Shown here: one piece after another, positions 36,558 to 62,829 of the stretch
Position numbering within the stretch: position 1 is the first letter of the stretch
Layout of the letters: the number at the start of each line of letters is the position of its first letter
Source of the DNA: Sporichthya polymorpha DSM 43042
GTDB taxonomy: Bacteria > Actinomycetota > Actinomycetes > Sporichthyales > Sporichthyaceae
Direction of reading: 5' to 3'
Length of the DNA: 64,000 bases
Assembly (NCBI RefSeq): GCF_000384115.1
Contig: NZ_KB913029.1
Location: forward strand, 1 to 64,000
Program-made: the position numbers and the translations under genes
The notes under the pieces: model-generated
Database searches by the model: none
The model's input: the letters and a program-made list of their open reading frames with translations, nothing else
Told to the model about the DNA's origin: nothing

Positions 36558-36607
36558 AAGAAAGGGTGACACCCCTTACTGCGGAGTAAGGGGTGTCACC
36601 CTTTCTT
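36558..36607. terminator. palindromic element, copy between two convergent operons
   Basis: Perfect 23-nt arms (half-site AGGGTGACACCCCTTACT preceded by AAGAA) around a GCGG loop. A-rich and T-rich flanks on both sides give the form of a bidirectional intrinsic terminator between the gene ending at 36530 and rocD ending at 36663. Confidence 0.85.
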
Positions 36608-36662
36608 GACACGGGGGCGGCCGGGTTCGGCCACCGGCGGCGGGCTCATCGGCGGTGTCTGG

Positions 36663-37880
36663 TCAGCCGCGGAGGGCCTCGGCCAGGCGGGCGACGGCCC
36701 AGTCGATCTCGTCGCCGGTGATGATCAGCGGCGGGGCGAGGCGGATCGTCGAGCCGTGGGTGTCCTTGGCGAGGACGCCGAGGTGCATCAGCCGCTCGCA
36801 GATCTGCCGGCCGGTGCCGACGGCGGGGTCGATGTCGATCCCGGCCCAGAGGCCGCGACCGCGGACGGCGGTGACACCCATCGACGTCAGTTCGCCGAGG
36901 CCGTCGTGCATGCGAGCGCCGTGGACGCGGGCCCGCTCCTGGAACTCGCCGGTCGTAAGCAGCCGGACGACGGCGCGGCCGACCGCACAGGCGAGCGGGT
37001 TGCCGCCGAATGTCGAGCCGTGCTGACCCGGCTTCAGAACACCGAGCACGTCGGCGTCCGCGACCACCGCGGAGACCGGCACGATGCCGCCGCCGAGGGC
37101 CTTGCCGAGCAGGTACATGTCCGGGACGACGTTCTCGTGGTCGCACGCGAACAGTGCACCCGTTCGGCCCAGCCCGGACTGGATCTCGTCGGCGACGAAC
37201 AGGACCCCGCGCCGGGTGCAGATCTCGCGCACGGCGGTCAGGTAGCCCGCCGGCGGGACGAGGACCCCGGCCTCGCCCTGGATCGGCTCGATCAGCACCG
37301 CGACGGTGTTGTCGTCGATCGCGGACTCGATCGCCGCGGCGTCGCCGTAGGGCACGACGGTGAAGCCCGGGGTGAACGGGCCGAAGTTGTCGCGCGCGTC
37401 GGGGTCGGTCGAGAACGAGACGATCGTCGTCGTCCGGCCGTGGAAGTTGTCCGCGGCGACGAGAATGTTCGCGCGGTCGCGGGCGACGCCCTTGACCTCG
37501 TAGCCCCACTTGCGCGCGACCTTGATCGCGGTCTCGACGGCCTCGGCGCCGGTGTTCATCGGCAGGACCATCTGCTTGCCGGCGAGGTCACCGAGCTCGG
37601 CACAGAACTCGTAGAGCCCGTCGTGGTCGAACGCGCGGCTGGTCAGCGTGAGCCGGTCCAGCTGGTCGCGCGCCGCGGCGAGCAGCTCGGGGTGGCCGTG
37701 GCCGAAGTTCAGCGCCGAGTACGCCGCGAGGCAGTCCAGGTAGCGCTTGCCGTCGACGTCGGTCACCCAGGACCCGGCCGCCTCGCGCACCACGACCGGC
37801 AGCGGGTGGTAGTTGTGCGCGCAGCGGTCACGCAGGTCGGCGCGGTCCGCGGCGGCGGTGCGCGCAGCGGGAACGGTCAT
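36663..37880 (-). CDS. rocD: ornithine--oxo-acid transaminase
   Basis: A 405-aa class III PLP aminotransferase converting ornithine to glutamate-5-semialdehyde. It has [56 protein letters not shown] and the PLP lysine in [16 protein letters not shown]. The start is ATG 37880. It lies 28 bp after the dimethylargininase gene; together they would degrade arginine-derived compounds. The Lrp-type regulator at 39686 is a likely controller. Confidence 0.93.
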
Positions 37881-37908
37881 TCGGCACCTCCGAGCGCGCG
37901 GGGCGAGG

Positions 37909-38808
37909 TCATGAACGCAGTTCCAGGGTGCAGCACTTGGGACCTCCGCCGGACTTCTTGAACTCGGACAGCTCGACGGGCACGGGATCGTAGCCCCGCT
38001 CGCGCAGGGCCGCGGCGAACCGAACGCTCTCGACGGGGACGACGACGTGCTTGCCGTCGGAGACCGAGTTCATCGCGAACGTCGCGGCCTCGTCGGCGTC
38101 GACGGTGATCGCGTCCGGGAACATCCGGCGCAGGACCGCGTTGCTGCCCGGCGAGAACGCACCCGGGTAGTAGGCGATGTCGTGGTCGCCGAGGACGGCG
38201 ATGGCGGTGTCGAGGTGGTAGTAGCTCGGGTCCACCAACTGCAGCGAGATCACCGGCTTGCCGAAGAACTCCTGCGCCTCGCCGTGCGCCATGCGCGAGG
38301 TGCGGAACCCGGTGCCGGCGAGGAGGACGGTGTCGAGGTCGAGGAAGTCGCCCTCGCCCTCGTTGACGGTGCTCGTCGAGCCGAAGTCGGAGAATCGCCC
38401 GGTCGCGCGCAGCCATTCCAGGTACGCGGGGCCCTCGGGCTGCCGCTCGGCGGCGAGGAAGCTCGCGCCCAGCACCTTGCCGTCGACGACGAGCGCGCCG
38501 TTCGCGGCGAAGACCATGTCCGGAAGACCCGGCACGCCCTCGAGAATGTCGACGGTGTGGCCGAGCGCGCGGTAGGCGTCGCGCAGGCCCTCCCACTGCC
38601 GCATCGCCAGGCCGGTGTCGACGGGCTCACCGTTCGGGTCCATCCACGGGTTGATCGCGTACGTGACCTCGAAGTGGGTCGGCCGGCACATCAGGTAGTG
38701 CCGCGGGCGCGCGACGCGGACGCCGGGCAGCGTGGTGACGGTGGCCGGGCTGGTCGAGGCGCCGGAGGCGGGAGCCGGGATCGCGGGAGTCCCGGTCACG
38801 TGAGGCAT
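37909..38808 (-). CDS. ddaH: dimethylargininase (N(G),N(G)-dimethylarginine dimethylaminohydrolase)
   Basis: A 299-aa member of the amidinotransferase/DDAH superfamily that would hydrolyse methylated arginine to citrulline. [38 protein letters not shown] and [14 protein letters not shown] supply the Glu/Asp/His; the nucleophilic Cys lies in [11 protein letters not shown] at the C-terminus. The ATG at 38808 is preferred over 38814 because a TAGGTA hexamer sits 5 nt upstream. The gene order ddaH-rocD is common in actinobacteria. Arginine deiminase activity is a less likely alternative. Confidence 0.87.
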
Positions 38809-38813
38809 CGTCA

Positions 38814-38819
38814 TACCTA
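38814..38819 (-). promoter_or_regulatory. probable leaderless -10 element for ddaH
   Basis: TAGGTA on the minus strand, 5 nt before the ATG at 38808, with no ribosome site. Confidence 0.4.
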
Positions 38820-38876
38820 TGACGGTAGGAAGCGACGTCGCCCCCGTCAGGTCAAAGCGTTGCGCGTAAGCGTCGT

Positions 38877-38900
38877 TTCGTTGCGTTCTGGCGCAACGAA
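38877..38900. promoter_or_regulatory. candidate Lrp/AsnC-type operator upstream of ddaH-rocD
   Basis: TTCGTTGCG at 38877-38885 and CGCAACGAA at 38892-38900 are perfect 9-bp arms with a 6-bp spacer. A further half-site CGTTGCG occurs at 38858-38864, one helical turn or two away. The repeat lies about 60 bp upstream of the presumed ddaH start. Confidence 0.5.
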
Positions 38901-39018
38901 TCGACGCGATGGATCACCGGCCCCCGTTATGTCCGAGTCGGTAACACGGCCGGAACTTTCCGCCGTCGCAGCGGGGTCAGCCGCGCCGGCCGGGACGCAA
39001 CGGGGCAGGATCTTCCCC

Positions 39019-39597
39019 ATGGCCCACATCGCGCTGTTCCACTCGATCCTCGGCGTCCGTCCCGGCGAGCTCGACGGTGCCCGCCGCCTCACCGAGGCCG
39101 GGCACGAGGTCCGTGTCGTCGACCAGTACGACGGTGAGGTCTTCGACGATTACGAGGACGCCACCGCGTTCGCCCGCACGGTCGGCTACCACGAGCTCAT
39201 CGGCCGGGCCCTCGCCTCGACGCTCGACCTCCCCGACGGGTTTCTCGCGCTCGGGTTCTCCAACGGCGCCGTGATGGCGCAGTACGTCGCGCTCCAGCGG
39301 CCGGTCAGCGGCGTCGTGCTCGTCTCCACCGCCGTCGAGCTTGCCGAGATCGGCGGGAAGGCCTGGCCGTCCGAGGTCGCCGTCCAGCTCCACCACGCGA
39401 TGGACGACCCGTGGAAGGAACCGCAGCAGATGATCGACTTCGTCGGCCAGGTCCAGCAGGCCGGCGCCGACATCGACGTCTTCGACTACCACGCCGGCGG
39501 CCACCTGTTCACCGACCCGTCCAAGGCCGACGAGTACGACGAGGCCGGCACCGAGCTGTTCTGGGAGCGGACCCTCGCCTTCTGCGCCGCCCGCTGA
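39019..39597 (+). CDS. dienelactone hydrolase family protein
   Basis: A 192-aa alpha/beta hydrolase. HIALFHSILGVRPGELDGARRLTEAGHEVRVVDQYDG is the family N-terminus. The nucleophile elbow reads GFSNGAVMAQ, with Ser in place of the Cys of true dienelactone hydrolases. The Asp/His end is DYHAGGHLFTDPSK. The start is ATG 39019. It is divergent from ddaH and convergent with the Lrp gene across a palindromic element. The substrate is unknown. Confidence 0.83.
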   Translation: MAHIALFHSILGVRPGELDGARRLTEAGHEVRVVDQYDGEVFDDYEDATAFARTVGYHELIGRALASTLDLPDGFLALGFSNGAVMAQYVALQRPVSGVVLVSTAVELAEIGGKAWPSEVAVQLHHAMDDPWKEPQQMIDFVGQVQQAGADIDVFDYHAGGHLFTDPSKADEYDEAGTELFWERTLAFCAAR

Positions 39598-39625
39598 CTC
39601 CTTCGACCGAAGTCGCGATGTCAAG

Positions 39626-39669
39626 AAAGGGTGACACCCCTTACTGCGCAGTAAGGGGTGTCACCCTTT
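39626..39669. terminator. palindromic element, loopless 44-bp copy
   Basis: A perfect palindrome of two 22-nt arms (half-site AGGGTGACACCCCTTACT plus GC), continued by TTT to a run of six T on the right and by GATGT/ACATC flanks. It lies between the convergent hydrolase (stop 39597) and Lrp gene (stop 39686). Confidence 0.87.
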
Positions 39670-39685
39670 TTTCACATCAGGGCGG

Positions 39686-40144
39686 TCAGGCGAGGCCGCT
39701 GCCCTCCGCGCGGCGGAGGAGGGACGACATCACAATCGCGGACCGGGTGCGGGTGACGAAGCGCTCGGCGGCGATCTGTTCCACCACCCGCTCGAGGTGC
39801 TTGATGTCCCGGGCGAGGACGTGGAGAAGGGCGTCGGCGTCGCCGGTGACGGTCGAGGCGGAGACGACCTCGGGGAACCGGGCGACGGCGGCGCGGATCT
39901 TCTCCGGGGACGTGCGGCCCTCGCAGTAGAGCTCGACGAAGGCCTCGGTCGTCCAGCCCAGCGCGGCGGGGTCGACGACGGCGGTGAAGCCGCGGATCGC
40001 CCCGGTCGACCGCAGCCGGTCCACGCGCCGCTTCACCGCGGGGGCGGACAGGCCGATCTCGGAGCCGATGTCGGCGTAGCTGGTGCGCGCGTCGGCCTGC
40101 AGCGCCGCGACGATCTGCGCGTCCAGCGGGTCGAGGTCCGGCAC
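39686..40144 (-). CDS. Lrp/AsnC family transcriptional regulator
   Basis: A 152-aa regulator. The N-terminal winged helix (LDPLDAQIVAALQADARTSYADIGSEIGLSAPAVKRRVDRL) binds DNA. The C-terminal RAM/AsnC domain (FVELYCEGRTSPEKIRAAVARFPEVVSASTVTGDADALLHVLA) senses amino acids. The neighbouring arginine/ornithine catabolic genes and the inverted repeat at 38877 make ddaH-rocD its probable targets. It lies 13 bp after the VanW gene on the same strand. Confidence 0.9.
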   Translation of the reverse strand: MPDLDPLDAQIVAALQADARTSYADIGSEIGLSAPAVKRRVDRLRSTGAIRGFTAVVDPAALGWTTEAFVELYCEGRTSPEKIRAAVARFPEVVSASTVTGDADALLHVLARDIKHLERVVEQIAAERFVTRTRSAIVMSSLLRRAEGSGLA

Positions 40145-40157
40145 GCCAGCCTCCGGC

Positions 40158-42071
40158 TCAGTCGCGGCCGGAGTCGTCGTCGCCCGAACCGACGGGCAGC
40201 GGCGGGGCCGACGAGGTCGTCGTCGGGGTCGCGGACGGCGACGGTTCCGGCTTCGGCGTCGGGGTCGACTTCGGCGGCTTCGGTGTGCGGGACGGGCTCG
40301 GGTCGGGCGAGGAGCTCGAGCCCGGCGTCGGCGACTTGGTGCCCTTGCCCGGCTCGACGCAGACGATCTTGTCGGTCGGGAAGTAGTGGGTGTCGTAGGT
40401 CTCCCGCTTCACCTCCTCGCCGTCCTTTATGAAGACGCGCGTGATGGTGATGTCGAAGCCGTCGACCGGCGACTGCTCCTCGCAGTCCGGGTCCTCGGAC
40501 TCGACCGTCTTCGGCGAGACGATGTTGCGCCGCGGCGAGGAGATCGACTCGATCTCGTCCCACACCTTGGTGCCCCACATCGAGACCTCGATGGAGCCGA
40601 CCTTGTGCGTCGCCTGGATGTAGACGGGGTGGCCGGAGTCGTTCTGGAAGCGCAGGTCCTTCGAGCCCCACGCGACCGTCGCCTCGCGGCCGGCCGGGTA
40701 CCGGCTGATGTAGAGGCTGTGCGGGTGGTGCTCGATGTCCTTGAGCCCCGCGAAGAACGCGGCGTTGTAGGTCGTCGTCGCGGACTGCGAGACACCGCCG
40801 CCGAGGTCCTCGATGAACTGGCCGTTCTTGATGATGTAGCCGCGGACGAAGCCGTTCTTGACGGTCCGTTCGCCGACGGTCTTGTTCAGGCTCCAGATCT
40901 CGTCGGGCATGACGATCGAGCCGTTGATCAGCTCGGCGGCCCGGCCGATGTTCGTGACGCGGTAGGCCGCGTACGGGTACTCGGTCTTGAAGCTGGAGAG
41001 CTTGTCCGAGATGCCGAGCGCCTCGGCGTCGGCGGTGCTGAACTCCGGCGCCTGCGTGCGCGCACCGGCGTCCACGGTGCGGGGCCCGTCGCCGATGAGG
41101 ACGTCCGCGAGCTTGTCGCCGAGCACCCGCGCGTCGAGGACGATCCCCGCGCGGCTCGGGATGATCTCGACGGTCTCCTCTTCCTCGTCGAACCGGAACT
41201 TCGCGTCGCGCGGCGGACGGCCGAGGTCCTCGACCTCGTCCTCGAGGCTGTCGACCAGCCCCTCGGCGTCGACGACCAGGCGGAGCTCGCCGTCGGCGGG
41301 CTCGGTCGACAGGAACGGGCCGAACTCGGCGGGCGTCAGCTCGACGGCGTTCTTGGCGACGGTGATCGTCACCGGCCCCGACATGGCCTTGGCCCCGATG
41401 CCCGCGAGGGCGCGGTCGACGGCGGCCTGGTCGATCTCCGGCTGCACGTCGACGATCGCGGCCGCGACCTCGCTGTCCCCGGCGAGGAACGCGTCGGTCA
41501 GCGCGGCGGCGACGGCCTCGTCGTCCAGGCCGCGGCCGGGGACGGGCGCGATCGGCTTCGCGACGCCGGTGGAGAAGTCCAGCCCGCCCTCGACGAACCC
41601 GAGGCTGACCTCGTCGTTCATCTCCTCGACGGCCGTCTGCAGCGTCTCGGTGTTGACCGCCGGCACCGGGTCGACCTCCCGGCCGGCCCCGAAGAGGGTC
41701 TTGATCGCGCGGAACGGGGACGCCCAGCCCTCACGCGCCTTCTCGGCGGTGGCCTCGAGGTCGACGTCCAGGCCGAGCTCGCCGGTCGGCCGCGACAGTC
41801 GTTTGTCCCCGGCCACAACGGTCATCGCGTCCGGGAGCCGCTCGGGCAGCGCCACGGACAGGTGCATCCGGGCGTCCTCGACCGACTTCCCGCCGATCGG
41901 GATGCCGAGCACCTCGGTGTTGCGCGGGATGTTGCCGCCGGTCGTCGCCACCGCGACGCCGTACAGCAGCCCGACGGCAGCGACGGCCCCGCCGGCGACG
42001 ATCCCGACACGCAGTGCGGTCCGGCGCCCGCCGGACCCACCGGCCGAGGAGACCGGGGTGGACTCGGTCAC
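40158..42071 (-). CDS. VanW family protein with peptidoglycan-binding-like repeats
   Basis: A 637-aa membrane-anchored protein. One helix (about residues 20-45) is followed by two PG_binding_4-like domains (SVEDARMHLSVALPERLPDAMTV and the later SGPVTITVAKNAVELTPAEFGPFL). The VanW domain has YPYAAYRVTNIGRAAELINGSIVMPDEIWSLNKTVGERT and GGGVSQSATTTYNAAFFAGL. A Pro/Thr/Ser/Lys tail of ~80 residues may span the wall. Recent work on related actinobacterial proteins suggests a wall-associated role; the activity is not established. The start is GTG 42071. Confidence 0.87.
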   Translation of the reverse strand: MTESTPVSSAGGSGGRRTALRVGIVAGGAVAAVGLLYGVAVATTGGNIPRNTEVLGIPIGGKSVEDARMHLSVALPERLPDAMTVVAGDKRLSRPTGELGLDVDLEATAEKAREGWASPFRAIKTLFGAGREVDPVPAVNTETLQTAVEEMNDEVSLGFVEGGLDFSTGVAKPIAPVPGRGLDDEAVAAALTDAFLAGDSEVAAAIVDVQPEIDQAAVDRALAGIGAKAMSGPVTITVAKNAVELTPAEFGPFLSTEPADGELRLVVDAEGLVDSLEDEVEDLGRPPRDAKFRFDEEEETVEIIPSRAGIVLDARVLGDKLADVLIGDGPRTVDAGARTQAPEFSTADAEALGISDKLSSFKTEYPYAAYRVTNIGRAAELINGSIVMPDEIWSLNKTVGERTVKNGFVRGYIIKNGQFIEDLGGGVSQSATTTYNAAFFAGLKDIEHHPHSLYISRYPAGREATVAWGSKDLRFQNDSGHPVYIQATHKVGSIEVSMWGTKVWDEIESISSPRRNIVSPKTVESEDPDCEEQSPVDGFDITITRVFIKDGEEVKRETYDTHYFPTDKIVCVEPGKGTKSPTPGSSSSPDPSPSRTPKPPKSTPTPKPEPSPSATPTTTSSAPPLPVGSGDDDSGRD

Positions 42072-42186
42072 GAAACCTGCTCCCCTTGAAGGCGCGTGGC
42101 CACCAGCCCCGCCGAACGACAACGCCGACAAGTACACCAAACGCCCGCGGCGCGGGCGGCGGAACCGGGTACTCGCCGCGCCGGGA

Positions 42187-42669
42187 TCACGCCGGCGGTG
42201 TCTCCGGGTCGGCGATCGAGGCAGGCGCCGGCAGCGTGGCGAACGGGACGGCGGACACGGCGGCGAGCGCGGTGACACCGCCGAACAGGTACAGATAGCC
42301 CGCGAGGTCGGCGGCGATGATCACATCGCCCTCCGGCCGCCCCGCGGTGAAGACGAGGACGCTGATCACCCAGCCCGCGGCGAGCATCCCGACCGCGAGG
42401 CGGCTGCGCGTGAGCATCCCCGCGCTGAGCGCGACCGCCCCGAGCACGACCAGCATGAACACGCACCCGAGCGGCCAGCGGACCCCGGCCGAGACCGTCC
42501 GCGCCTGGAGGAACGACCCGCCGGCCCCGACGAGGAACCCCAGCGCCACCAGTCCGGCCGCCGTCCCCAGCACCGCCGGGAGCGGCTGGGTCGCGTGCGG
42601 CGGGGCGACCTTCGCCGGGGCCTTGGCGGGAGCGGAGCGCCGCTTCGCCGCGGACGGCTTGGAGCTCAC
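42187..42669 (-). CDS. DUF6113 family membrane protein
   Basis: A 160-aa protein: an Ala/Lys/Pro-rich N-terminus of about 30 residues, then four hydrophobic segments. The conserved [22 protein letters not shown] matches the family found downstream of mshB in streptomycetes. Its GTG overlaps the mshB stop (GTGA), so it is translated with MshB. The function is unknown. Confidence 0.78.
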
Positions 42670-43556
42670 AGTCCCGCGAACAGGTCGGACTCGGGGCCGT
42701 CGGCCGGGGCGGGGACGGTGCCGCCGACGAGGCGGAAGCACTCGACACCCCAGATCTTCTGTCCGAGGTGGTTCGAGAGCGCGAAGAACGGGCCGTCGAC
42801 GGTGATCTGGGTGGCGTGGGCGCGCATCGCGGCCATCTTGGCCTCGATGTACTCCTCGCCCTCGACGTAGCTGGTGACGAGCTCGTCGGGCACGCCCATG
42901 CCGAGGTCCTCGACCCGCTCGACGCCGTTGAAGAACTCGTTGTCCCCGGCCGCGCGGAGGGCGTCGATGCCGGACTGCAGGAACGAGAACGGGATCGCGT
43001 ACCAGTAGATCTTCGCGACGGTCCACGCCGCGCCGAGGTCGGGCCGGAACGCGGAATCGGCGGCGAGCTCGGCGGCCCGCATCGTGACCCGGTGGGCCTG
43101 GATGTGGTCGGGGTGGCCGTAGCCGCCGTTCTCGTCGTAGGTCACGAGCACCTGGGGCCGGACCTCGCGGAGCACCTCGACCAGGTGCGCGGCGGCCTCG
43201 TCCAGCTCGGCCCGCCAGAAGCAGTTCTCGCGGTCGTTGGAGGCGACACCCATCATCCCGGAGTCCCGGTACCGGCCGGGGCCGCCGAGAAACCGGAAGT
43301 CGGTGACGCCGAGGGCCGCCATCGCGTCCGCGAGCTCGGAGATGCGGTGCGGCCCGAGGGCGTCGTCGGCGTCGGCGGCGAGGTGGGCGAGCTCGGGGAC
43401 GAGGACCTCGCCCTCCTCCCCCAACGTGCAGGTCACGAGCGTGACGTGGACGCCCTCGGCGGCGTACTTGGCCATCACGATCCCGCTGTTGATCACCTCG
43501 TCGTCCGGGTGGGCGTGGACGAGGACGATCCGGCGGTCGGCGGTCGGGGCGGGCAT
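42666..43556 (-). CDS. mshB: N-acetyl-1-D-myo-inositol-2-amino-2-deoxy-alpha-D-glucopyranoside deacetylase
   Basis: A 296-aa zinc deacetylase of mycothiol synthesis. [17 protein letters not shown] supplies the His and Asp ligands and the catalytic Asp. [18 protein letters not shown] gives the second His. [35 protein letters not shown] is typical of MshB rather than of Mca. The start is ATG 43556 preceded by TAGATT and 6 nt, suggesting a leaderless mRNA. It supports the actinobacterial assignment. Confidence 0.92.
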
Positions 43557-45658: not shown

Positions 45659-45677
45659 CGAATATCCTGACGGGTAG

Positions 45678-49018: not shown

Positions 49019-49095
49019 GGCCCGCAGGATCGAACGGAGAAGTGCGCGACCGGTCAGCGGATCCTCGCGGGCTCGGGAGCTGGGGAGCTGGGAAG

Positions 49096-50365: not shown

Positions 50366-50453
50366 CCGAAAGAAATTCGCCTTGGCGGGAGGCTAACGCC
50401 GGGGCGGGTGAGCCGGGGCCGCAAGCGCTCGGTTCGTGCCAGATTCCGTCGCT

Positions 50454-50493
50454 GTCAGTGATGCTGTCAGCGGCGCTGTCAGTGCCGTGTAAG
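50454..50493 (+). promoter_or_regulatory. direct GTCAG repeats, candidate SARP-type binding site
   Basis: GTCAG at 50454, 50466 and 50478 plus GTAAG at 50489, spaced 12, 12 and 11 bp. The array ends 22 bp before the PIG-L gene start. Direct repeats at about one helical turn are the recognition form of BTAD/SARP regulators. Confidence 0.5.
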
Positions 50494-50515
50494 CCGTTCG
50501 GGTGACGCTACCCCC

Positions 50516-51262
50516 ATGACTCCGGTGAGAACTGCACGCAGCGTGATCAATTTGCCGGCCGCGGTCGCGGACCTCGGCACGATCCTCGGCGTCTGGGCCC
50601 ACCCCGACGACGAGGCGTACCTGTGCGGCGGGATCTACGCGGCCGCCCGCGACGCCGGCTCCCGCGTCGTCTGCGTGACCGCCACCCGCGGCGAGGCCGG
50701 GGGCGACCCGGTGCAGGAGCCGCCGGAGCGCCTCGCGGCCGTCCGCACCGCGGAGATGGCGGCCTCGCTCGCCGTCCTCGGCGTCGTCGAGCACCACTGG
50801 CTGGACCTGCCCGACGGCGGCTGCGCCGACCTCGACCCGGAGCCGCAGATCGCCCGGATCGCGGCGCTGATCACCGCGATCGGGCCGGACACCGTCCTCA
50901 CGTTCGGCCCCGACGGCGAGACCGGGCACGCCGACCACATCGCGGTCTCGACCTGGACGACGGCCGCGTTCCGCCGCGCCGCCGCCCCGGGTGCGCGCCT
51001 GCTCCACACCGCCGTCCCCGCGCGCTGGTGGGCCGAGTTCGGCCACCTCAACGACGAGTTCCCCGCGTTCGAACCCGGGAGCCCGATCGTGGTGCCGGAC
51101 GACTCCCTCGCCCTCGACCTCGTTCTCGACGACGGCCTGCTCGCCCGCAAGGTCGCCGCGCTCCGCGCCCAGACCAGCCAGACCGCCGGCATCGAGGCGG
51201 GCATGGGCCCCGACCTCTACGCCCGCTGGGTCCGCGACGAGTCGTTCGTCGACGCGACCTGA
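50516..51262 (+). CDS. PIG-L family deacetylase
   Basis: A 248-aa relative of MshB. GVWAHPDDEAYLCGGIYAAARDAG gives the metal ligands and catalytic Asp; FGPDGETGHADHIAVSTWT gives the second His. It is shorter than MshB and lacks its substrate-specific insertions, so a different N-acetyl-sugar is likely. The start is ATG 50516. It is convergent with the adjacent regulator and carries a candidate SARP site upstream. Confidence 0.87.
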   Translation: MTPVRTARSVINLPAAVADLGTILGVWAHPDDEAYLCGGIYAAARDAGSRVVCVTATRGEAGGDPVQEPPERLAAVRTAEMAASLAVLGVVEHHWLDLPDGGCADLDPEPQIARIAALITAIGPDTVLTFGPDGETGHADHIAVSTWTTAAFRRAAAPGARLLHTAVPARWWAEFGHLNDEFPAFEPGSPIVVPDDSLALDLVLDDGLLARKVAALRAQTSQTAGIEAGMGPDLYARWVRDESFVDAT

Positions 51263-51269
51263 CCCACCC

Positions 51270-54169
51270 TCACCCGGCCGACTGCGCTCGGGTGAGGTGG
51301 CGGGCCAGGGCGGCGCGGGCGGTGGCGAGGGCACCGGGGCGGGAGAGGTCGGCCCCGGGCGGGAGCGTCCCGGTCGGGGGCGGCAACGGCGGGGCGTCGG
51401 GGTCGCGGTGGGCGGCGGCGCGCAGGATCGCCGCCGGCTCCGGGTCGCCGAGGACGTCGAGGAGGTCGGCGAGATTCCGCAGCGTGACCCACTGGTGCGT
51501 CCAGTTGCCCGCGCGCGCCCAGTACTCGACGACGTCCCGGAAGCCGGCGAGCGCCTCGGCGACCCGCCCCGCTCGGTGAGCGCCGCGAGCCGGCCGACCG
51601 AGGCGATGCCGACGACGAACGTCGCGCCCGCCGCCCGGGCGAGGGCGATCGCCTCGGCGTAGCGCTCCTCGGCGAGGTCGCCGGCCGTCGAGGAGATCTC
51701 GCCCTCGACGTAGAGCGCGAAGGCGCGCAGCGCCGGGTAGTTGGCGCGCTCCAACGTGCGGCGGGTCAGCTCGCGCGCGAGGTCGAGGTCGCCGCCGTAC
51801 AGCGCACCCAGCGCCCCGACCGCGGGTGAGGAGGACGGCCGCGTCGCGTACTTCTCGGCGTCGAGGTCGTAGGCGACCGCGGCGTCCCAGTCCGCCCGGG
51901 TCAGCGCCGCGGAGGACAGCGCGACGAGCAGGAAGCGGCGCGCGTCGCCCGTCCCGCCACCCCGTTCGACGAGCTCGAGCCCGCCTCGGCCGAACCGCTC
52001 GGCGGCAACGTGGTCGCCGCGCATGTAGGCGTCCATCGCGGCACCGGCGTGGACGGCGACCGCGCCCGGGTGGTCGTCGGGGAAGCCCGCGGCGAGCAGC
52101 TCCTCCGCCCAGCCCGTGAGCCGGGTCAGGTCGCGCCAGGACCGGGCGTCCGCCAGGCTCGTCACGATCGCGGCCGCGGCGTCGAGCCGGCCGTGCTCGC
52201 GCGCGAGGGCGAACGCCGCGCGCAGGTTGAGCACCTCGCGGCGCAGCGTCGCGTCGGCCTCCGGTTCGGCCGCGCTGTGGCCCCGCTCGTCGATGTGCGC
52301 CGCGAGGTCGACGGACCACGACACGACCCGCGCCGCGGCGGTGGCGCTCTCGCCGGCCGCGGCGAGGCGGTCGGCGCCGAACGCGCGCAGGGTCTCGAGC
52401 ATCCGGTAGCGGGTGCGGCCGGTCGTGAGGTCGACCTCGAGCATCGATGCGTCGACCAGGTGCGCCAGCGCGGTGGCGGGGTCGCCGGGGACGTCGAGGT
52501 CGGCGGCGAGGCGCTCGGCCGTCGCGAGGTCGACGCCGTCGGCGAACGCGGCGAGGTGCCGGAACAGGCGCTGCTCCCCCTCGGGCAGCAGCGTGTACGA
52601 CCACTGGACGGTGTCGCGCAGCGTGCGATGCCGGGCGTCCGCGCTGGGGCGCCCGTCGCCGAGCAGGTCGAGGGCGCGGTCGAGTCGCTCGTGCAGGTCG
52701 GCGAGGGAGAACGACGCGAGCCGGCCGGCCGCGAGCTCGATCGCGAGCGGCATCCCGTCGAGCCGTCGGACGATGTCGGCCACCACGGGCCGCTCCGCCG
52801 CCGTCGGCGCGAACCCGGGCCGGACACGCGCGGCGCGGTCGCAGAACACGTCGACGCCGGCGTCGTCGGCCAGCGGGCCGACCCGGTGGCGGACCTCGGC
52901 CGACAACCCGATCGGGGACCGGCTGGTCGCGAGCAGGTGCAGGTCCGGGCAGCCCGCGAGCAGCGCCGCCAGCCCGTCGCGGACCGGTTCGATCAGGTGC
53001 TCGCAGTTGTCGACGACCAGCACCGCGGGCCGCGCCGCGAGCACCGCGACGCACGCCGCGAGCAGGTCGGGGTGGTGCCCGCGGACGTCCAGCGCGGTCG
53101 CGAGCGCGGCCGGGATCCCCGCCGCCTCGGTCACCGGGGCGAGGACGACGAACCCCGCGGCCTCGACCCGGTCCGCCACCGCCTGCGCCAGCCGGGTCTT
53201 TCCCACCCCACCCGGCCCGATCAGCGTCACGAGCCGCTCGGTCCGCAGCAGCTCGACGAGCTCCGCGACCTGGTCGTCGCGGCCGACCAGCCGATGCACC
53301 GCCGGCGGGGTCGCGAAGTCCCCCGCCCGGACCCGCGTCCGCCCCCCACTGGAGATGACATCTCCACCGGATCGGGCGGAATCGTTGGAGATGACATCTC
53401 CAGTGGGGGCGAGGGCGCCGGCGGCGATGGAGCGCTCCAGGGCGGCGAGGGCCGGGGAGGGGTCCAGGCCGGTCTCGTCGGCGAGGCGGGCGCGGAAGGT
53501 CCGGGCCGCGTCGAGGGCCGCGGCCGCCTGGCCGGTGCGGGCCTGAGCCTGCATCAGAAGCAGGACCGCGGGTTCCCGCAGCGGGTCGAGCGCGAGCGCG
53601 GCGACAGCCTCGGAGACCAGCCCCTCGAGGCGGTTCGCGGCGAGCGCGGCGGTGATCGAGAGGTCGGACAGGTCGCGCCGCAGGTCCGCGCACGCCAGCG
53701 ACTGGGCGGCGAGCGGCGGGACGTCCCCGAACTCCGCGAGCACCGGACCACGCCACAGCGCGAGCGCCCCGCGGGCGAGGTCGTCGGCCGCGGCGGGGTC
53801 GGTTGCGAGCCGGCGCCGGGCGTCCGCCAGCGCGGCCGCGGCGCGCGACAGGTCCAGGCCGTCGGCGGCGAGCCGGAGCCGGTAGGCGCCGTCGAGCCGT
53901 TCGAGGTTCTCGCCCGCCGCCCCGAGCTGGGCGCGCAGGCGCGAGACGTGGCTGTGCAGGGCCGCCCGTCCGGAGTCCGGGATCTCGTCGGGCCAGAGGG
54001 CGTCGAGCAGGGCGTCGTCGGTGACGGCCCGTCCGTCCACGACCGCGAGCAGCGCGAGTACCGCGCGGCGCTTCGGCCCGCGCACGTCGACCTCGGCGTC
54101 CCCTGCGCCGACTCGCAGGGGCCCCAGGACGTCGACGCGCAACCCCGCGCGCGTGGTCCCGGTCGCCAT
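51270..54169 (-). CDS. AfsR/SARP-like regulator (BTAD + NB-ARC + TPR-like), with apparent frameshift near 51566
   Basis: A large regulator of about 965 aa if one base is restored. The N-terminal winged helix (VDVLGPLRVGAGDAEVDVRGPKRRAVLALL) and BTAD domain end near residue 245. NB-ARC follows, with P-loop TLIGPGGVGKTRLAQAV and AVLVVDNCEHL; helical repeats fill the rest. The frame starting at ATG 54169 leaves homology at LAALTER. The continuation EALAGFRDVVEYWARAGNWTHQWVTLRNLADLLDVLGDPEPAAIL is in another frame down to the stop at 51270. The change lies in a G-run (51566-51570 on the plus strand). Unshifted, the frame runs on to 50393 antisense to the PIG-L gene. A palindromic element interrupts the linker after the BTAD domain. 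Confidence 0.8.
53343..53409. repeat. inverted pair of a dispersed palindromic element inside the regulator gene
   Basis: Two arms of about 24 nt (53343-53366 and 53385-53409) are inverted copies with one mismatch. Each contains TGGAGATGACATCTCCA, which is itself palindromic. The spacer is 18 bp. The reading frame stays open and the insert encodes the linker GDVISNDSARSGGDVIS between the BTAD and NB-ARC domains. A third copy of one arm is at 22906-22930. Confidence 0.7.
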
Positions 54170-54266
54170 GGCGCTCAGCATCCCAGCCCGGACCCCGAGT
54201 TCCGGGCCTCATTTTCGCCCGTCCGGCCCAGTGCCCGCGGCGGACCGACGCCGTGCCGGCCCCGGT

Positions 54267-54293
54267 GTCAGTGCGCTGTCAGCGCCGTGGCAG
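54267..54293 (+). promoter_or_regulatory. direct GTCAG repeats, candidate SARP-type binding site
   Basis: GTCAG at 54267 and 54278 and GGCAG at 54289, spaced exactly 11 bp, about 63 bp before the FAD oxidoreductase start. A similar array precedes the PIG-L gene at 50516 on the other side of the regulator. Confidence 0.55.
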
Positions 54294-54355
54294 CCGGTGC
54301 GAACAGGGTCGGCGCCCATCGAGCAGACGCAACGAAGCGAACGAAGGAGAACGCC

Positions 54356-55678
54356 ATGACGGCGATCGAGGACCGGGCCACCCGGACCGGCAGCGCGGAG
54401 GCGATCGCAGCGGAGCTGCGCGCCACCCTGCGCGGTCAGGTGATCGACCGCTCCCACCCCGAGTACGAGGAGGCTCGCCACGTCTGGAACGGGCTGATCG
54501 ACCGCTACCCCGCGGTGATCGCGCGCTGCGCCGGCGTCGCCGACGTCGTCGCCGCCGTCCGGGTGGCGCGGGAGCACCGGCCGCTGCTCAGCGTCCGCGG
54601 CGGCGGGCACCAGGTCGCGGGTTCCGCGGTGGTGGAGGACGGGCTCGTGATCGACGTGTCCGCGATGACCGGCGTGCACGTCGACCCGGTGGCCCGCACG
54701 GCGCGCGTCCAGGCCGGTGCCCGCTGGGCCGACGTCGACCGCGCGACGCAGGTGTGGGGGCTCGTCACCCCCGGCGGCGAGGTGTCGGACACGGGCGTCG
54801 CCGGCTACACCCTCGGCGGCGGGATGGGCATCCTGCAGCGTCGGTTCGGCCTCGCCTGCGACAACCTGCGCTCGGTGGAGATCGTCACCGCCGACGGTGT
54901 CGTCCGCACCGCGAGCCGGACCGAGAACGCCGACCTGTTCTGGGCACTGCGCGGCGGCGGCCGCGGACTCGGCGTCGTGACGTCGTTCGAGTTCGAGCTG
55001 CACCCGCTCGGGCCGCAGGTCGCGCAGGCGCTGGTGGCGTACCGCTACGACGAGGCGGCCCAGGTACTGCGTGGCTTCCGGGACTACGCGGTCACCGCGC
55101 CCGACACGCTCTCCCCCGAGGCCGGGCTGTGGTGCCTGCCGGCCGAGCCGGTGCTCGCCCCGCTGCGTTCGCTCGGCACCGCGGTGATCGACCTGTCGGG
55201 GACGTTCGACTACGTCGACGTGCAGCGGTCGCCGGACGCCCGGTTCCCCGCCGGCGACCGGTACCTGTTCACGTCGCACTTCCTCGACGAGCTCACCGAC
55301 GCCGCGATCGACGCGATGGTCGAGTGCGACGCGACCCGGCCCACCCCGCGGTCGCTGACCATCGTGCGGACGATGGGCGGCGCGATCGACCACGTCACCG
55401 ACGGCGGCGCGTGGGCGCACCGCGGGGCGCGGTTCAACCTCTCGATCGACGCGGCGTGGAGCGACCCCGCTCTCGACGCGACCGCGATGGGGTGGGCCCG
55501 CCGCTCGCACGCCGCCATGGCCCGCTTCGCCAACGGTGGCGTCTACCTGAACTTCGCCGACGTGCATGAACAGGCCGACCCGGCGAAGGTCTTCGGTTCC
55601 GCGGCCGCGCGCCTTGATCAGGTCCGCGCGACCTACGACCCGGACGGGCTCTTCGCCGCCGCCGCGGCCCGACCCTGA
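54356..55678 (+). CDS. FAD-binding oxidoreductase, berberine-bridge type (shortened)
   Basis: A 440-aa flavoenzyme related to the one at 15117. LSVRGGGHQVAGSAV (FAD-linking His), TPGGEVSDTGVAGYTLGGGMGILQRRFGLACDNL and ADLFWALRGGGRGLGVVTSF are intact. Around residues 255-275 (LSPEAGLWCLPAEPVLAPLRSLG) about 25-30 residues present in typical members seem to be missing. The reading frame is kept. The start is ATG 54356 with GAAGGAG upstream. It is divergent from the regulator, which may activate it. It ends in a run of 16 C. Confidence 0.85.
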   Translation: MTAIEDRATRTGSAEAIAAELRATLRGQVIDRSHPEYEEARHVWNGLIDRYPAVIARCAGVADVVAAVRVAREHRPLLSVRGGGHQVAGSAVVEDGLVIDVSAMTGVHVDPVARTARVQAGARWADVDRATQVWGLVTPGGEVSDTGVAGYTLGGGMGILQRRFGLACDNLRSVEIVTADGVVRTASRTENADLFWALRGGGRGLGVVTSFEFELHPLGPQVAQALVAYRYDEAAQVLRGFRDYAVTAPDTLSPEAGLWCLPAEPVLAPLRSLGTAVIDLSGTFDYVDVQRSPDARFPAGDRYLFTSHFLDELTDAAIDAMVECDATRPTPRSLTIVRTMGGAIDHVTDGGAWAHRGARFNLSIDAAWSDPALDATAMGWARRSHAAMARFANGGVYLNFADVHEQADPAKVFGSAAARLDQVRATYDPDGLFAAAAARP

Positions 55679-55694
55679 CCCCCCCCCCCCCCCC
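55679..55694. repeat. homopolymer of 16 C directly after a stop codon
   Basis: The run starts at the base after the TGA of the FAD oxidoreductase. Such a tract is prone to slippage and to sequencing error; here a length change would not alter the protein. Confidence 0.8.
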
Positions 55695-55704
55695 GAAAGA
55701 TCGG

Positions 55705-55736
55705 CGGCGGGCCCGGATCCCCCTCCGGGCCCGCCG
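55705..55736. terminator. GC-rich hairpin between convergent genes
   Basis: CGGCGGGCCCGGA and TCCGGGCCCGCCG are perfect 13-bp arms around a 6-nt loop, placed between the FAD oxidoreductase stop and the lipoprotein stop at 55750. There is no U-tract. Confidence 0.65.
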
Positions 55737-55749
55737 TCGTGCGTCTCGA

Positions 55750-56847
55750 TCAGGACGTCGGGCTGGGTGACGCCTCGTCAGCCGAGTCCCCGCCCAGCAC
55801 CGCCGCGAGCTTCGGGACCAGCAGGTCGATCGCGGTCGGGAGGCTGAGCACCGAGATGTACGCCATCGCGGCGACGAGTTCCTCCTCGTCGACGAAGACG
55901 TCCCGCTCCTCCCGGGAGACGTCGAGGGTGGCGTACACCGGGTGGTTCTCGACCGTGGCGCGCTGGTCGGAGCTCGCGAGCTCCCAGACCAGGACGTCCC
56001 GGTCGAGCAGCTCGAGCTGCTCGGCACTGATCGCGGAGAACGAGGCGTCGGCGTCGGCCAGGTCGTCGATCTCGGCCGGGATCTCGAAGCCGAGCTGGGT
56101 CAGGATGGCGACCCGCGAGCTGCGCGAGTTCTCCGTGTAGAACCCGTCCTCCAGCACACCGGCGTACGCCGCCTGGACGCCCGCGAACTCGGGGTGGGCC
56201 GCGCGGGCGGCGGTGAAGGCATTCTCGACCTCGGTGATCAGCGCCTCGGCCTCGGCCGTCCGGCCGAGGGTCCGGCCCGCGGCCCGCGTGACCTCCTGCC
56301 ACGGCGCGAAGTAGTCCGGGAAGCCGGGCAGCTGCGCGACGGTCGGGGCGATCGCGGACAGCTGCCGGTACTCGGCCTCGGTCATCCCCGAGGTGAACCC
56401 GGTGATCAGGTCCGGCTCCAGCGCCGCGATCGCCTCGATGTTCAGCTCGGTGTAGCTGAGCACCTCCGGCCGGGCGTCGCCCAGCCGGTCGTGCGCCCAC
56501 GGCCACACCGCGGACCGCTGGAGCTCGGAGACCGAGTCACCACCGATCCCGACCGGCACCACCCCGAGCGCGAGCAGGGCGTCGTGATCGACGAAGCCCA
56601 GCGAGACCACGCGCTGCGGGGCGACCGGGACCTCGGTCTCCCCGTACTTGTGGGCCACCCGCAGCGGGGTCGCGGTCGGCGACGCGGGGACGCTCGGCGT
56701 GAGCAGCCCCTCGTCGTCGTCCGCGCACCCGCCGATCAGCAGGCCGGCCCCGAGCGCGGCTCCGGACCCGAGGAACCGACGGCGCGTCAGGTCGTCGTCG
56801 ATCTCGGGAGTGAACAGGGCCGGGCGGTCGAGCAGCTGCGTGGTCAT
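55750..56847 (-). CDS. iron-siderophore ABC transporter substrate-binding lipoprotein (Tat)
   Basis: A 365-aa binding protein. The Tat motif RRRFLGSGAALGAGLLIGGC ends in a lipobox Cys, so it is an exported lipoprotein. The class III (FepB/FhuD-like) fold shows PQRVVSLGFVDHDALLALGVVPVGIGG and ALEPDLITGFTSGMTEAEYRQLSAIAPTV. Its ATG overlaps the stop of the upstream paralogue (ATGA), so both lie on one iron-regulated mRNA. No FecCD-type permease gene lies in the window. The C-terminus is Ser/Pro/Thr-rich. Confidence 0.87.
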   Translation of the reverse strand: MTTQLLDRPALFTPEIDDDLTRRRFLGSGAALGAGLLIGGCADDDEGLLTPSVPASPTATPLRVAHKYGETEVPVAPQRVVSLGFVDHDALLALGVVPVGIGGDSVSELQRSAVWPWAHDRLGDARPEVLSYTELNIEAIAALEPDLITGFTSGMTEAEYRQLSAIAPTVAQLPGFPDYFAPWQEVTRAAGRTLGRTAEAEALITEVENAFTAARAAHPEFAGVQAAYAGVLEDGFYTENSRSSRVAILTQLGFEIPAEIDDLADADASFSAISAEQLELLDRDVLVWELASSDQRATVENHPVYATLDVSREERDVFVDEEELVAAMAYISVLSLPTAIDLLVPKLAAVLGGDSADEASPSPTS

Positions 56848-57947
56848 GCGGGCTCCGGTTCGGACGTCGCGGTCGGGGACGCGGTGAGCGTGGAGAGCAG
56901 GAGGTCCTCGATGTCGTCGAGCATCGCCTCGACGGCGGGGAGGGAGTAGCCGGTCCCCCAGAGGACCTCGGGGACGAAGAACGCGCGGCCGGCGGCGACG
57001 GCCGGGAGCCGTGACCACAGCGGGTTGTCCTCCAGCGTCCGGCGCGTCTCGTCCTCGTTGTTCCCGTCGCTGACGAACAGCACGTCGTGATCGAACACGT
57101 CGAGCCGCTCGGGCGAGATCACCTCCGAGAACTCCTCCGGGGCGGGGCGCTCGCCGGGCAGGCCGATGGCGTCGAACAGGGGCTGGACGGTGTTCTGCAC
57201 CGTCCCGTCCCCCGGGACCCGGACGAACGCGGCGGTGGGCAGCCCGCCCGTGCCGGAGAGCTGGTTCCGCAGGGCGGTCACGCGGTCCCGCAGCGCGCCG
57301 GACAGTTCGGCGGCGCGGTCGACGCGGTCGACCGCGATCGCGACGTCCGCCAGCAGCCGCAGGTAGTCGTCGAAGCGCAGGTAGCCGTTGAACGCGCCGA
57401 ACACGGGGACGCCCGTGGTGCGCAGCTTGTCGAAGATCGGTGTGTAGAAGTCGACACCGGCCTCGGCGACCATCAGCATCAGGTCGGGGCGGACGCCGAG
57501 GATGCCCTCCAGGTTGGGCTCGTCGAAGGTGCCGCCGACGTTGGTAATCGCGCCCAGGTCGCCGAAGCGGGTCAGGTACGGATAGTTGTCGATCGAGAAG
57601 TCGCCGCGCGCCCAGCCGGCGATCCGCTCGATCTCGATCCCGAGCACCAGCATGTTGCCGAGGACCTGGTCGTCGAGGGCGACGATCCGCTGGGGGTTCC
57701 CCGGCACCGTGATCGAGCCGAAGACGTCGGAGACCGTGCGCGGCCCCGCCGTCGCGGTCTCGGACGGGGCGGGCGTGGCGCCCAGCGAGTTCTCGTCGTC
57801 GTCGGCGCAGCCGCCGAGCAGGAGTGCGCCGCCCACAGCGGCGCCGGAGCCGAGGAATCGACGACGGGTGAGGTCGTTCTCGATCGGGTCGTTCGCGAGG
57901 TCGAGGACGGTGGAGCCGGGGGTGGGAGCTTCCAGAAGGGTCACCAT
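56844..57947 (-). CDS. iron-siderophore ABC transporter substrate-binding lipoprotein (Tat), first copy
   Basis: A 367-aa paralogue of the next gene with the same Tat-lipobox leader (RRRFLGSGAAVGGALLLGGC). The binding domain has PQRIVALDDQVLGNMLVLGIEIERIAGWARG, GVRPDLMLMVAEAGV and LWSRLPAVAAGRAFFVPEVLWGTGYSL. The two proteins differ strongly in their ligand-facing segments, so they may take different siderophores. It starts at ATG 57947, just 9 bp from an iron box. Confidence 0.87.
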   Translation of the reverse strand: MVTLLEAPTPGSTVLDLANDPIENDLTRRRFLGSGAAVGGALLLGGCADDDENSLGATPAPSETATAGPRTVSDVFGSITVPGNPQRIVALDDQVLGNMLVLGIEIERIAGWARGDFSIDNYPYLTRFGDLGAITNVGGTFDEPNLEGILGVRPDLMLMVAEAGVDFYTPIFDKLRTTGVPVFGAFNGYLRFDDYLRLLADVAIAVDRVDRAAELSGALRDRVTALRNQLSGTGGLPTAAFVRVPGDGTVQNTVQPLFDAIGLPGERPAPEEFSEVISPERLDVFDHDVLFVSDGNNEDETRRTLEDNPLWSRLPAVAAGRAFFVPEVLWGTGYSLPAVEAMLDDIEDLLLSTLTASPTATSEPEPA

Positions 57948-57956
57948 GGCCGGAGC

Positions 57957-57975
57957 TTAGGGAAGCCTGACCTAA
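57957..57975 (-). promoter_or_regulatory. DmdR/IdeR iron box
   Basis: TTAGGGAAGCCTGACCTAA is a good match to the DtxR-family consensus and ends 9 bp before the ATG at 57947. Iron should repress both binding-protein genes. Confidence 0.87.
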
Positions 57976-58024
57976 TCGGCCACTACGTCGGACTCTCGTC
58001 GTGGCGCCCTGATTGGATGCGCCC

Positions 58025-62108: not shown

Positions 62109-62258
62109 GCGAAACTCCTGACGAAAGAAACCGGGACTGACCCCATTCTCCTGTACCCGCCGGGGTGTTCCTGACCACGCGAGCGGCAAATTCGCATGCC
62201 GGAGCAGCGCGGCGCGCCCTATCGTTCCTCGGTCCGCCACCGTTCCAGGAGTTCCGTC

Positions 62259-62747
62259 ATGCGCGCGCTCACGGCGACCGAGATCGCCGATTCCTTCGTC
62301 AACTGCACCCGCGGCGAGGTCAAATCGATGACGCCGATCCGCGGTTTGGCGGACGTGGACTGGGAAGTTCGCGAGTTCCTCGGCTGGCGCGACCCGAGGG
62401 CGCCGGCGCGGGCGTACCTCGTCACCGTCCGCGACGACCGACCCCTGGGGGTGGAGCTGCGCGCAACGACGGAGTCCCGTCCGGCCCGCGGGAGCGCGCT
62501 GTGCGACATCTGTCACACCGCCCACCCGGCCGACTCCGTGGGCCTGTTCGTCGCCCGGAAGGCCGGGCCGCGGGGCCGGGATCACAACACGGTCGGCACG
62601 TACATCTGTGCCGATCTCGCGTGCCCGCTGTACGTCCGGAAGCTCCGTCCGGTCACCCTCCCCCAGGGCGAGACCGCCCCGCCGGAGGAGCGCGCCCGCC
62701 GGCTCCAGCGCCGCCTCGACGCGTTCCTCGACCGCGTCCTCGCCTGA
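62259..62747 (+). CDS. FBP domain treble-clef zinc-finger protein (FusB-type C-terminal domain)
   Basis: A 162-aa protein. LTATEIADSFVNCTRGEVKSM starts the FBP domain. Zinc ligands are the CDICHTAH and CADLAC pairs in LCDICHTAHPADSVGLFVARKAG and GTYICADLACPLYVRK. The domain is that of EF-G-binding fusidic-acid resistance proteins, but the N-terminal helical half of FusB is absent. The ATG at 62259 follows AGGAG. It is divergent from typA, another ribosomal GTPase. Confidence 0.83.
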   Translation: MRALTATEIADSFVNCTRGEVKSMTPIRGLADVDWEVREFLGWRDPRAPARAYLVTVRDDRPLGVELRATTESRPARGSALCDICHTAHPADSVGLFVARKAGPRGRDHNTVGTYICADLACPLYVRKLRPVTLPQGETAPPEERARRLQRRLDAFLDRVLA

Positions 62748-62779
62748 CGCCGGTCTGACACAGCCTCAGGCCTGTGGAA

Positions 62780-62829
62780 AAGAAAGGGTGACACCCCTTA
62801 CTGCGCAGTAAGGGGTGTCACCCTTTCTT
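62780..62829. terminator. palindromic element, loopless 50-bp copy
   Basis: A perfect palindrome of two 25-nt arms (AAGAAAGGGTGACACC opening) between the convergent FBP gene (stop 62747) and TetR gene (stop 62834). The left flank CCTGTGGAA is shared with the copy at 36558, and the right flank CACATCA with the copy at 39626. Confidence 0.88.

What the first reader, a model, noticed from the sequence alone, without database searches (positions are those of the whole stretch)
36558..62829. Family of near-identical long palindromes, mostly between convergent genes
Copies at 36558-36607, 39626-39669 and 62780-62829, plus a divergent one at 22952-22998, share the half-site AGGGTGACACCCCTTACT with A/T-rich ends. 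Two are perfect palindromes of 44 and 50 bp with no loop. The first three sit between convergent genes, where a bidirectional terminator is useful. But unrelated terminators need not share sequence, so conservation across 40 kb points to a repeated (REP/REPIN-like or mobile) element adopted as terminators, or to a protein-binding site. Flanking bits (CCTGTGGAA, CACATCA) are shared too.
Basis: partly seen in the sequence, partly recalled or inferred. Interest (0 to 1): 0.75.

Follow-up and report, generated by a model that had tools for sequence, protein, structure and literature searches.

The report
Conserved palindromic terminator-like repeats in Sporichthya
A soil bacterium carries about eighty almost identical long hairpin sequences just after its genes; they look like a spread-out repeat family that may now stop transcription in both directions, and a related species uses hairpins with a different wording.

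Summary
The window lies in a 5.50-Mb actinomycete genome (G000), by inference a Sporichthya. The full palindrome has 81 sites there with at most 3 mismatches; its half-site has 215 matches, the reversed control 0. Of 75 copies in the 1.28 Mb I read, 54 lie between convergent genes, 21 between co-directional genes, none between divergent genes or inside called genes; 72 lie within 60 nt of a stop codon (my own gene calls). Outward tails are T-rich on both strands. In sister species G002, 25 of 25 pairable copies have the element in the same gap; in 24 aligned pairs the arms differ at 12 of 816 sites, the flanks at 203 of 3077. Solo and tandem units share GGGTGWCACCC, and 68 of 126 ends carry TGTC or CGTC. 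I read it as a CGTC-type REP family, head-to-head dimers, serving as bidirectional terminators. No Y1_Tnp (RAYT) gene was found in five genomes. Other palindrome families with the same TGWCA centre occur in G000/G002 and in relative G001; one also lies inside genes. Termination and mobility of the long dimer are untested.

The parts
36558..36607 (.). Long palindromic dimer (50 bp, centre GCGG) between convergent genes 35976-36530(+) and 36663-37880(-, class-III aminotransferase)
   Evidence: same gap occupied in G002
39626..39669 (.). Long palindromic dimer (44 bp perfect, centre GCGC), TGTC end at 39619-39622, between convergent genes 39019-39597(+, dienelactone-hydrolase family) and 39686-40144(-, Lrp/AsnC family)
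   Evidence: same gap occupied in G002 and, by another palindrome family, in G001
62780..62829 (.). Long palindromic dimer (50 bp perfect, centre GCGC) between convergent genes 62259-62747(+, FBP_C) and 62834-63451(-, TetR)
   Evidence: same gap occupied in G002
22952..22998 (.). Degenerate long dimer (extra A in one arm), in the gap downstream of 23054-23674(-) and upstream of 21034-22674(-, DUF222)
23014..23040 (.). Solo unit, 27-bp perfect palindrome TCAACAAGGGGTGACACCCCTTGTTGA with the same GGGTGWCACCC core
22912..22930 (.). Degenerate copy of the second repeat family (TGGAGATGWCATCTCCA)
53350..53366 (.). Second repeat family, exact copy, inside the 50393-54181(-) gene (BTAD/ATPase regulator), in frame in the linker after the BTAD domain
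53386..53402 (.). Second repeat family, second exact copy, 36 bp further on

Best explanation
The palindromes are head-to-head dimers of a REP-type repeat: each unit has a TGTC or CGTC end, an A-then-G stem and a TGWCA centre. The family was already in place in the common ancestor of two Sporichthya species and is held at gene 3' ends, where it works as a bidirectional intrinsic terminator: transcripts from either side fold the same hairpin (17 pairs of near-invariant arm, extended by A-T pairs) that ends in TTTCTT or TTTTTT. Shown: copy number, position, T-rich tails, predicted hairpin, shared positions in two species, arm conservation, unit structure. Inferred: that it stops transcription, that it arose as a spreading repeat, and that selection (on termination, perhaps with a second sequence-specific reader) keeps the arms uniform.
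For: 81 full sites with at most 3 mismatches; 215 half-site matches against 0 in the control. 54 convergent, 21 co-directional, 0 divergent and 0 in-gene of 75; 72 of 75 within 60 nt of a stop codon; of the 16 in stretches outside the window that were not chosen for an element, 13 convergent, 3 co-directional, 0 divergent. In 1.0 Mb (the window and stretches taken for their position), 21 of 128 convergent, 9 of 457 co-directional and 0 of 144 divergent gaps hold the core (Fisher p about 1e-10 for convergent against the rest). Tails 5.44 and 5.46 T of 8 on the two strands, T frequency 0.14. Predicted hairpins with 23 unbroken pairs. Same gap occupied in G002 in 25 of 25 pairable cases. Arms 12/816, loop 13/96, flanks 203/3077 in 24 ortholog pairs (arms against flanks p 2e-10). 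TGTC 45 and CGTC 23 of 126 ends, GTAG 0. Solo and tandem units of the core: 41 clusters in three stretches, none in a called gene or divergent gap. No Y1_Tnp gene in 5 genomes, as CGTC repeats are said to lack a linked transposase (PMC3733652, passages).
Against: A plain terminator needs no fixed stem sequence, so arm uniformity is not explained by termination alone. The CCA tail of CGTC repeats is not evident in the dimers, and tandem clusters, rare in CGTC families, are frequent here. 58 of 126 ends lack TGTC/CGTC. In 25 of 25, sixteen G000 loci had been fetched for their element and three are the window's own copies; only six pairs are free of such choice. The tool's terminator scan of 33000-43000 named half of one of the two copies there, among 3 sites against 1.8 in shuffles. 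G001's families show no clear T-tail. No empty site was seen for the long dimer. No RNA data.
Confidence: 0.7

Rival explanations
1. The core is primarily a binding site (DNA or RNA) for a sequence-specific protein, for example a nucleoid, processing or termination factor, and the T-tailed hairpin is secondary.
For: Arms almost invariant in 24 ortholog pairs while the first and last loop bases differ at 13 of 48 sites; the same TGWCA centre recurs in families with different arms in G000/G002 and G001, and in a few palindromes of G003; tandem arrays of 3, 4 and 6 units.
Against: No candidate protein was found or sought; strict 3'-end placement and T-tails fit termination; the second family lies in genes as well, where a shared reader is hard to see.
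Confidence: 0.17
2. Actively mobile REPIN-RAYT system in the strict sense.
For: Dimer of near-palindromic units, high copy, 3'-end bias.
Against: No Y1_Tnp match in G000-G004 while the same search rang in 5 of 14 control genomes; no GTAG end among 126; no position change seen between G000 and G002 in 25 pairs.
Confidence: 0.03
3. DNA uptake sequence that is also used in terminators, as in Neisseria and Pasteurellaceae.
For: Species-specific wording around a fixed centre and inverted pairs at gene ends resemble uptake-sequence dialects (PMC3630211, PMC1852404; passages).
Against: About 215 half-sites rather than the 1,000 or more that PMC1852404 gives as usual, and the first family was not seen inside a called gene. 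No competence gene was examined.
Confidence: 0.04
4. Independent ordinary terminators that resemble each other by chance or composition.
For: Long hairpins with other sequences also sit in G001 and G004 gaps.
Against: 0 control matches; 59 of 75 copies have no mismatch at 34 arm positions; of 79 genomes searched, own included, only G000 and G002 have the half-site.
Confidence: 0.01

Closest known systems
CGTC-tagged REP superfamily (Di Nocera et al. 2013, PMC3733652; part of the Results section and passages read)
   Same: CGTC or TGTC end, first two stem pairs A-T, 9-bp stem in solo units such as TGTCAAGAAAGGGTGTCACCCTTTCTTGAC, 5-base centre, head-to-head dimers, 3'-end and convergent-gap placement, intragenic units (second family), no Y1_Tnp gene
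   Different: The passages list five phyla for CGTC repeats, without Actinobacteria (the word occurs 0 times in the main text; supplements not seen). Here no clear CCA tail in dimers, the two units of a dimer pair along their whole arms, tandem clusters are frequent, copies are very uniform, and tails are T-rich
REPIN-RAYT systems / GTAG REPs
   Same: Dimer of palindromic units in high copy outside genes
   Different: No GTAG end and no Y1_Tnp gene
Uptake-sequence terminators of Neisseria and Pasteurellaceae (PMC1852404, PMC3630211; abstracts and passages read)
   Same: Inverted pairs of a repeated motif form gene-end hairpins; wording changes with lineage round a fixed core
   Different: Fewer copies, first family not seen inside genes, no uptake evidence
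Rickettsia palindromic elements (as described in passages of PMC3733652)
   Same: Palindromic repeats in frame inside genes, as for the second family
   Different: Here the second family has a 17-bp core palindrome with variable extension; RPE sequences were not compared
TRIT terminators of Mycobacterium tuberculosis (RNIE paper, recalled; not held)
   Same: As recalled, a sequence-conserved terminator family in an actinomycete
   Different: Could not be compared; nothing of the paper was seen

Membership tests
CGTC-type REP | CGTC end (TGTC or CCTC variants) | tested here: met
   TGTC 45 + CGTC 23 of 126 ends; GTC expected at about 2.5%. 58 of 126 lack it.
CGTC-type REP | Stem 8-9 bp with A-T in the first two pairs | tested here: met
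   A at 89-90% of the two stem-end positions; solo units with a 9-bp stem
CGTC-type REP | Loop of 4-5 bases | tested here: met
   TGWCA centre of solo units; in the long dimer it is paired instead
CGTC-type REP | 3-base tail, mostly CCA | tested here: inconclusive
   CCA follows units in some tandem arrays; ACT lies there in the dimers
CGTC-type REP | Head-to-head dimers predominate | tested here: met
   81 dimers; tags, where present, lie outside
CGTC-type REP | No associated transposase | tested here: inconclusive
   Only Y1_Tnp was sought: 0 of 5 genomes; other transposases were not looked for
REPIN-RAYT | RAYT (Y1_Tnp) gene in the genome | tested here: not met
   0 of 5 genomes; rang in 5 of 14 controls
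REPIN-RAYT | GTAG end | tested here: not met
   0 of 126 ends
Bidirectional intrinsic terminator | Strong hairpin with T-rich tail on both strands just after stop codons | tested here: met
Bidirectional intrinsic terminator | Transcripts end there | not testable with these tools
   No RNA data
DNA uptake sequence | About 1,000 or more copies, also in genes | tested here: not met
   First family: 215 half-sites, none of 75 dimers in a called gene
DNA uptake sequence | Promotes uptake of DNA | not testable with these tools
   Needs transformation assays

The most novel reading that the evidence does not exclude
The family Sporichthyaceae has a repeat system with a fixed centre (TGWCA, in these families RTGWCAY) whose arms have been rewritten across whole genomes between species, like dialects: GGGTGWCACCC and GGAGATGWCATCTCC in G000/G002, CGGATGWCATCCG and AGGCGTGWCACGCCT in G001, a few GCATGWCATGC in G003. 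An unknown sequence-specific reader or mobiliser would drive the switch, and termination would be one use of the sites.
Probability: 0.2. Interest if true: 0.8.

Novelty: new variant of a known kind. Interest (0 to 1): 0.5.

Why it matters
It gives a clear case, in a phylum that the CGTC-repeat survey I read in part does not list, of a REP-like family whose copies stayed in place between two species, are nearly identical, and seem to supply terminators for convergent genes. Because a third species of the genus differs wholesale in wording but shares the same centre, it makes testable whether repeat uniformity is kept by termination, by a dedicated protein, or by a mobiliser. The hairpins could also be tried as bidirectional terminators in high-G+C hosts.

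Tried and rejected
Rfam: no family matches the window at the gathering score. tRNA: none. RAYT search: none. Exact pattern with a 10-base free centre in GTDB contigs: 0 stretches, but the tool may leave out the window's own and very near genomes, so this bears only on more distant ones.

Finder corrected: my first finder skipped imperfect copies lying before better ones, among them the window's own copy at 22952; it gave 66 copies, 48 convergent, 18 co-directional, 0 divergent. The recount by Hamming distance gives 75. Figures for ends and tails (63 copies with at most 1 mismatch) rest on the first list.

Slot conservation with G001: I took G001 convergent hairpins whose gap could be placed in G000 without that locus having been fetched for its element. 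4 of 12 such G000 gaps hold a palindrome (3 first family, 1 second family), against 16% of convergent gaps for the first family; not significant (p 0.12). Nine of the twelve were placed by one flank only, and I sent 9 of 18 unplaced gaps to that search. Five further pairs with an element lay in loci fetched for their element and two are window gaps of the finding; these seven were dropped. Three co-directional and two in-gene G001 sites paired with G000 sites without the first-family core. So conserved slots between G001 and G000 are NOT shown. One gene linker does carry different families at the same place in G000/G002 and G001.

Literature: nothing on TRIT/RNIE was held. Listings of searches showed me no description of these repeats; I saw listings only, apart from passages of three papers and part of one section. 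That is the extent of the claim.

Limits: genes were called by my own script, not by a standard caller. I read 1.28 of 5.50 Mb of G000, with element loci over-represented. Flank divergence includes coding sequence and gapped alignment and so understates intergenic change; without gaps, positions 20-40 bp out mismatch in about 40-50% of pairs, indels included. Of 40 G002 clusters 15 could not be paired, and one of the 25 pairs (no full palindrome in either) was dropped from the 24.

Full report
Identity of the genome. The window is the first 64 kb of a 5.50-Mb single-contig genome, G000. Relative G001 has a contig of 29,507 bases that matches the window, and the named collection holds a Sporichthya sp. 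MAG contig of the same length that carries the closest Lrp-family relative, 94% identical. I infer that G000, of the same genus by the tool's kinship, is a Sporichthya; the species is not known to me.

The observation. The four copies are as described. Genome-wide, the 20-base half-site has 103 forward and 112 reverse matches with at most 3 mismatches and none for the reversed control; the full palindrome with a free 4-base centre has 81 sites with at most 3 mismatches, control 0. Of 79 genomes searched, own included, the 19-base half-site (at most 1 mismatch) is in G000 and in G002, same genus (107 + 107), and in no other, including G001 of the same genus and G003 and G004 of the same family.

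Position. I called genes with my own codon-based script (90% coding in the contiguous sample). In 1,284,212 bases read, 75 dimers have at most 8 arm mismatches (59 none, 9 one): 54 in convergent gaps, 21 in co-directional gaps, 0 in divergent gaps, 0 inside called genes; the nearest stop codon is at most 60 nt away in 72 of 75, median 18. An earlier finder that missed imperfect copies gave 48, 18 and 0 of 66. Most of that sequence was fetched because it holds an element. In the stretches outside the window taken for their position alone, 16 dimers lie 13 convergent, 3 co-directional, 0 divergent, and in 1.0 Mb (those stretches and the window) 21 of 128 convergent, 9 of 457 co-directional and 0 of 144 divergent gaps hold the core GGGTGWCACCC (test).

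Anatomy. Of 63 copies of the first list with at most 1 arm mismatch, 56 have none at 34 arm positions; the centre is GCGC in 36, GCGG in 10 and CCGC in 10; outward the consensus is TTTCTTGACA. The first 8 outward bases hold on average 5.44 and 5.46 T on the two strands, where T makes up 0.14 of the sequence. Read inward, the tetranucleotide before the stem is TGTC 45 times, CGTC 23 times, TGTG 14 times and GGAA 11 times of 126, GTAG never. Folding of the three window gaps gives one hairpin of 23 unbroken pairs in each. The simple terminator scan of the tools named only one half of one of the two copies in 33000-43000.

Solo and tandem units. The core also occurs in solo palindromes of up to 29 bp and in arrays of 3, 4 or 6 units. 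In three stretches (204, 800 and 193 kb) it forms 41 clusters, the dimers included, none inside a called gene and none in a divergent gap.

Conservation. Of 40 G002 clusters, 25 could be paired with G000 by both flanks and all 25 have a half-site there; 15 could not be paired. Sixteen of the 25 G000 loci had been fetched for their element and three are the window's own copies, so six pairs are free of that choice. In 24 pairs the arms differ at 12 of 816 positions, the centre at 13 of 96 (all in its first and last base) and the gapped flanks at 203 of 3077 (tests). The ends switch between kinds and the centre changes while the arms on either side stay the same; that speaks against a very recent spread and against conversion of whole copies, and for constraint on the arms as sequence. 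This step is inference.

Relatives with other arms. In the gaps that match 36.5 kb and 39.6 kb, G001 has different hairpins. One, AACCANNAGGCGTGWCACGCNT, has 67 matches in G001 with at most 2 mismatches, 3 in G002 and none in G000, G003 and G004. The other, CAACGGATGWCATCCG, has 153 matches in G001 with at most 2 mismatches, 6 in G003 and 1-2 in the others, controls 0-1; with a slightly wider pattern and at most 1 mismatch, 36 of 296 genomes of the class have a match, G001 82, G003 7 and the rest 1-3 each. In fetched G001 sequence the two families lie in 28 convergent, 19 co-directional and 1 divergent gaps, 3 times in called genes and 2 times at a contig edge. A second family in the window's genome, TGGAGATGWCATCTCCA, has 79 copies in G000, 155 in G002 and none in the other three, at most 1 mismatch. 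Of 15 G000 clusters, 8 lie inside called genes, 6 in co-directional gaps and 1 in a divergent gap; 53350-53402 of the window is in frame in the linker of a BTAD-type regulator. At two places in one gene its copy number differs between G000 and G002, and at another site an insertion of 68 bp with two copies in G002 has a clean empty counterpart in G000. At one of those gene places G001 carries its own family. All share the centre TGWCA. Among odd perfect palindromes with arms of at least 7 in 1.0 Mb of G000, TGWCA is the fourth commonest centre (25), after three C+G-rich ones (48, 42, 40); the same count is 1 in 786 kb of other actinomycete loci, 4 in G002 C4, 2 in a G001 sample, 1 in G003 and 0 in G004.

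What was not shown. Conserved slots between G001 and G000 are not supported: 4 of 12 cases, p 0.12. Mobility of the long dimer is not shown. Termination is not measured.

Comparison. Di Nocera et al. (PMC3733652; part of the Results and passages read) describe CGTC-tagged REPs: CGTC or TGTC end, stem of 8-9 bp with A-T at the first two pairs, loop of 4-5, CCA tail, head-to-head dimers, units inside genes, no linked transposase; and REPs in general close to 3' ends in convergent and co-directional gaps. The first family meets the end, stem, loop and dimer features; tail and transposase are inconclusive. No Y1_Tnp domain was found in five genomes while the search rang in 5 of 14 controls, so RAYT-borne REPINs are not supported. 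Uptake sequences forming terminators (PMC1852404, PMC3630211; passages read) are the nearest functional parallel, but copy number and absence from called genes do not fit for the first family. Verdict: a REP-like family, not listed for this phylum in what I read, that appears to be adopted as bidirectional terminators.

Noticed in passing
53350-53402: Two exact copies of TGGAGATGWCATCTCCA lie in frame in the linker between the BTAD and ATPase parts of the 50393-54181(-) gene, encoding GDVIS twice.
   Followed up: yes
45660-58003: This 12.3-kb stretch is missing from the syntenic G002 contig C4, where its two sides are adjacent.
   Followed up: no
22912-22998: The second-family palindrome, a TTGTGGATAACCCC stretch (DnaA-box-like, recalled) and the degenerate dimer recur together near 898377, 3588514 and 5452631, so the 22.9-kb copy may belong to a longer repeat; the window copy lies upstream of a DUF222 gene, the others were not examined for that.
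   Followed up: partly
36550-36560 and 62772-62782: The alternative element end CTGTGGAAAAG / CTTTTCCACAG resembles a DnaA box (recalled); it is kept at the same end in several G002 orthologs.
   Followed up: no
G000:C1:5498896-5500128: Two pairs of second-family palindromes lie at either side of a segment of about 1.2 kb where G002 has only about 0.35 kb.
   Followed up: partly
L378 (G003:C169): At one gene place where G000 and G002 carry second-family copies, G003 has a different 13-bp inverted repeat.
   Followed up: no
L157 (G004), about 8740-8880: The G004 gap matching 36.5 kb holds its own hairpin with a stem of over 20 bp; parts of it were counted in two gaps of the G004 sample.
   Followed up: no
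L352 (G000 near 3685084): A convergent gap of 243 bp holds six tandem units of the core (GTCGACAAGGGGTGACACCC and the like).
   Followed up: no
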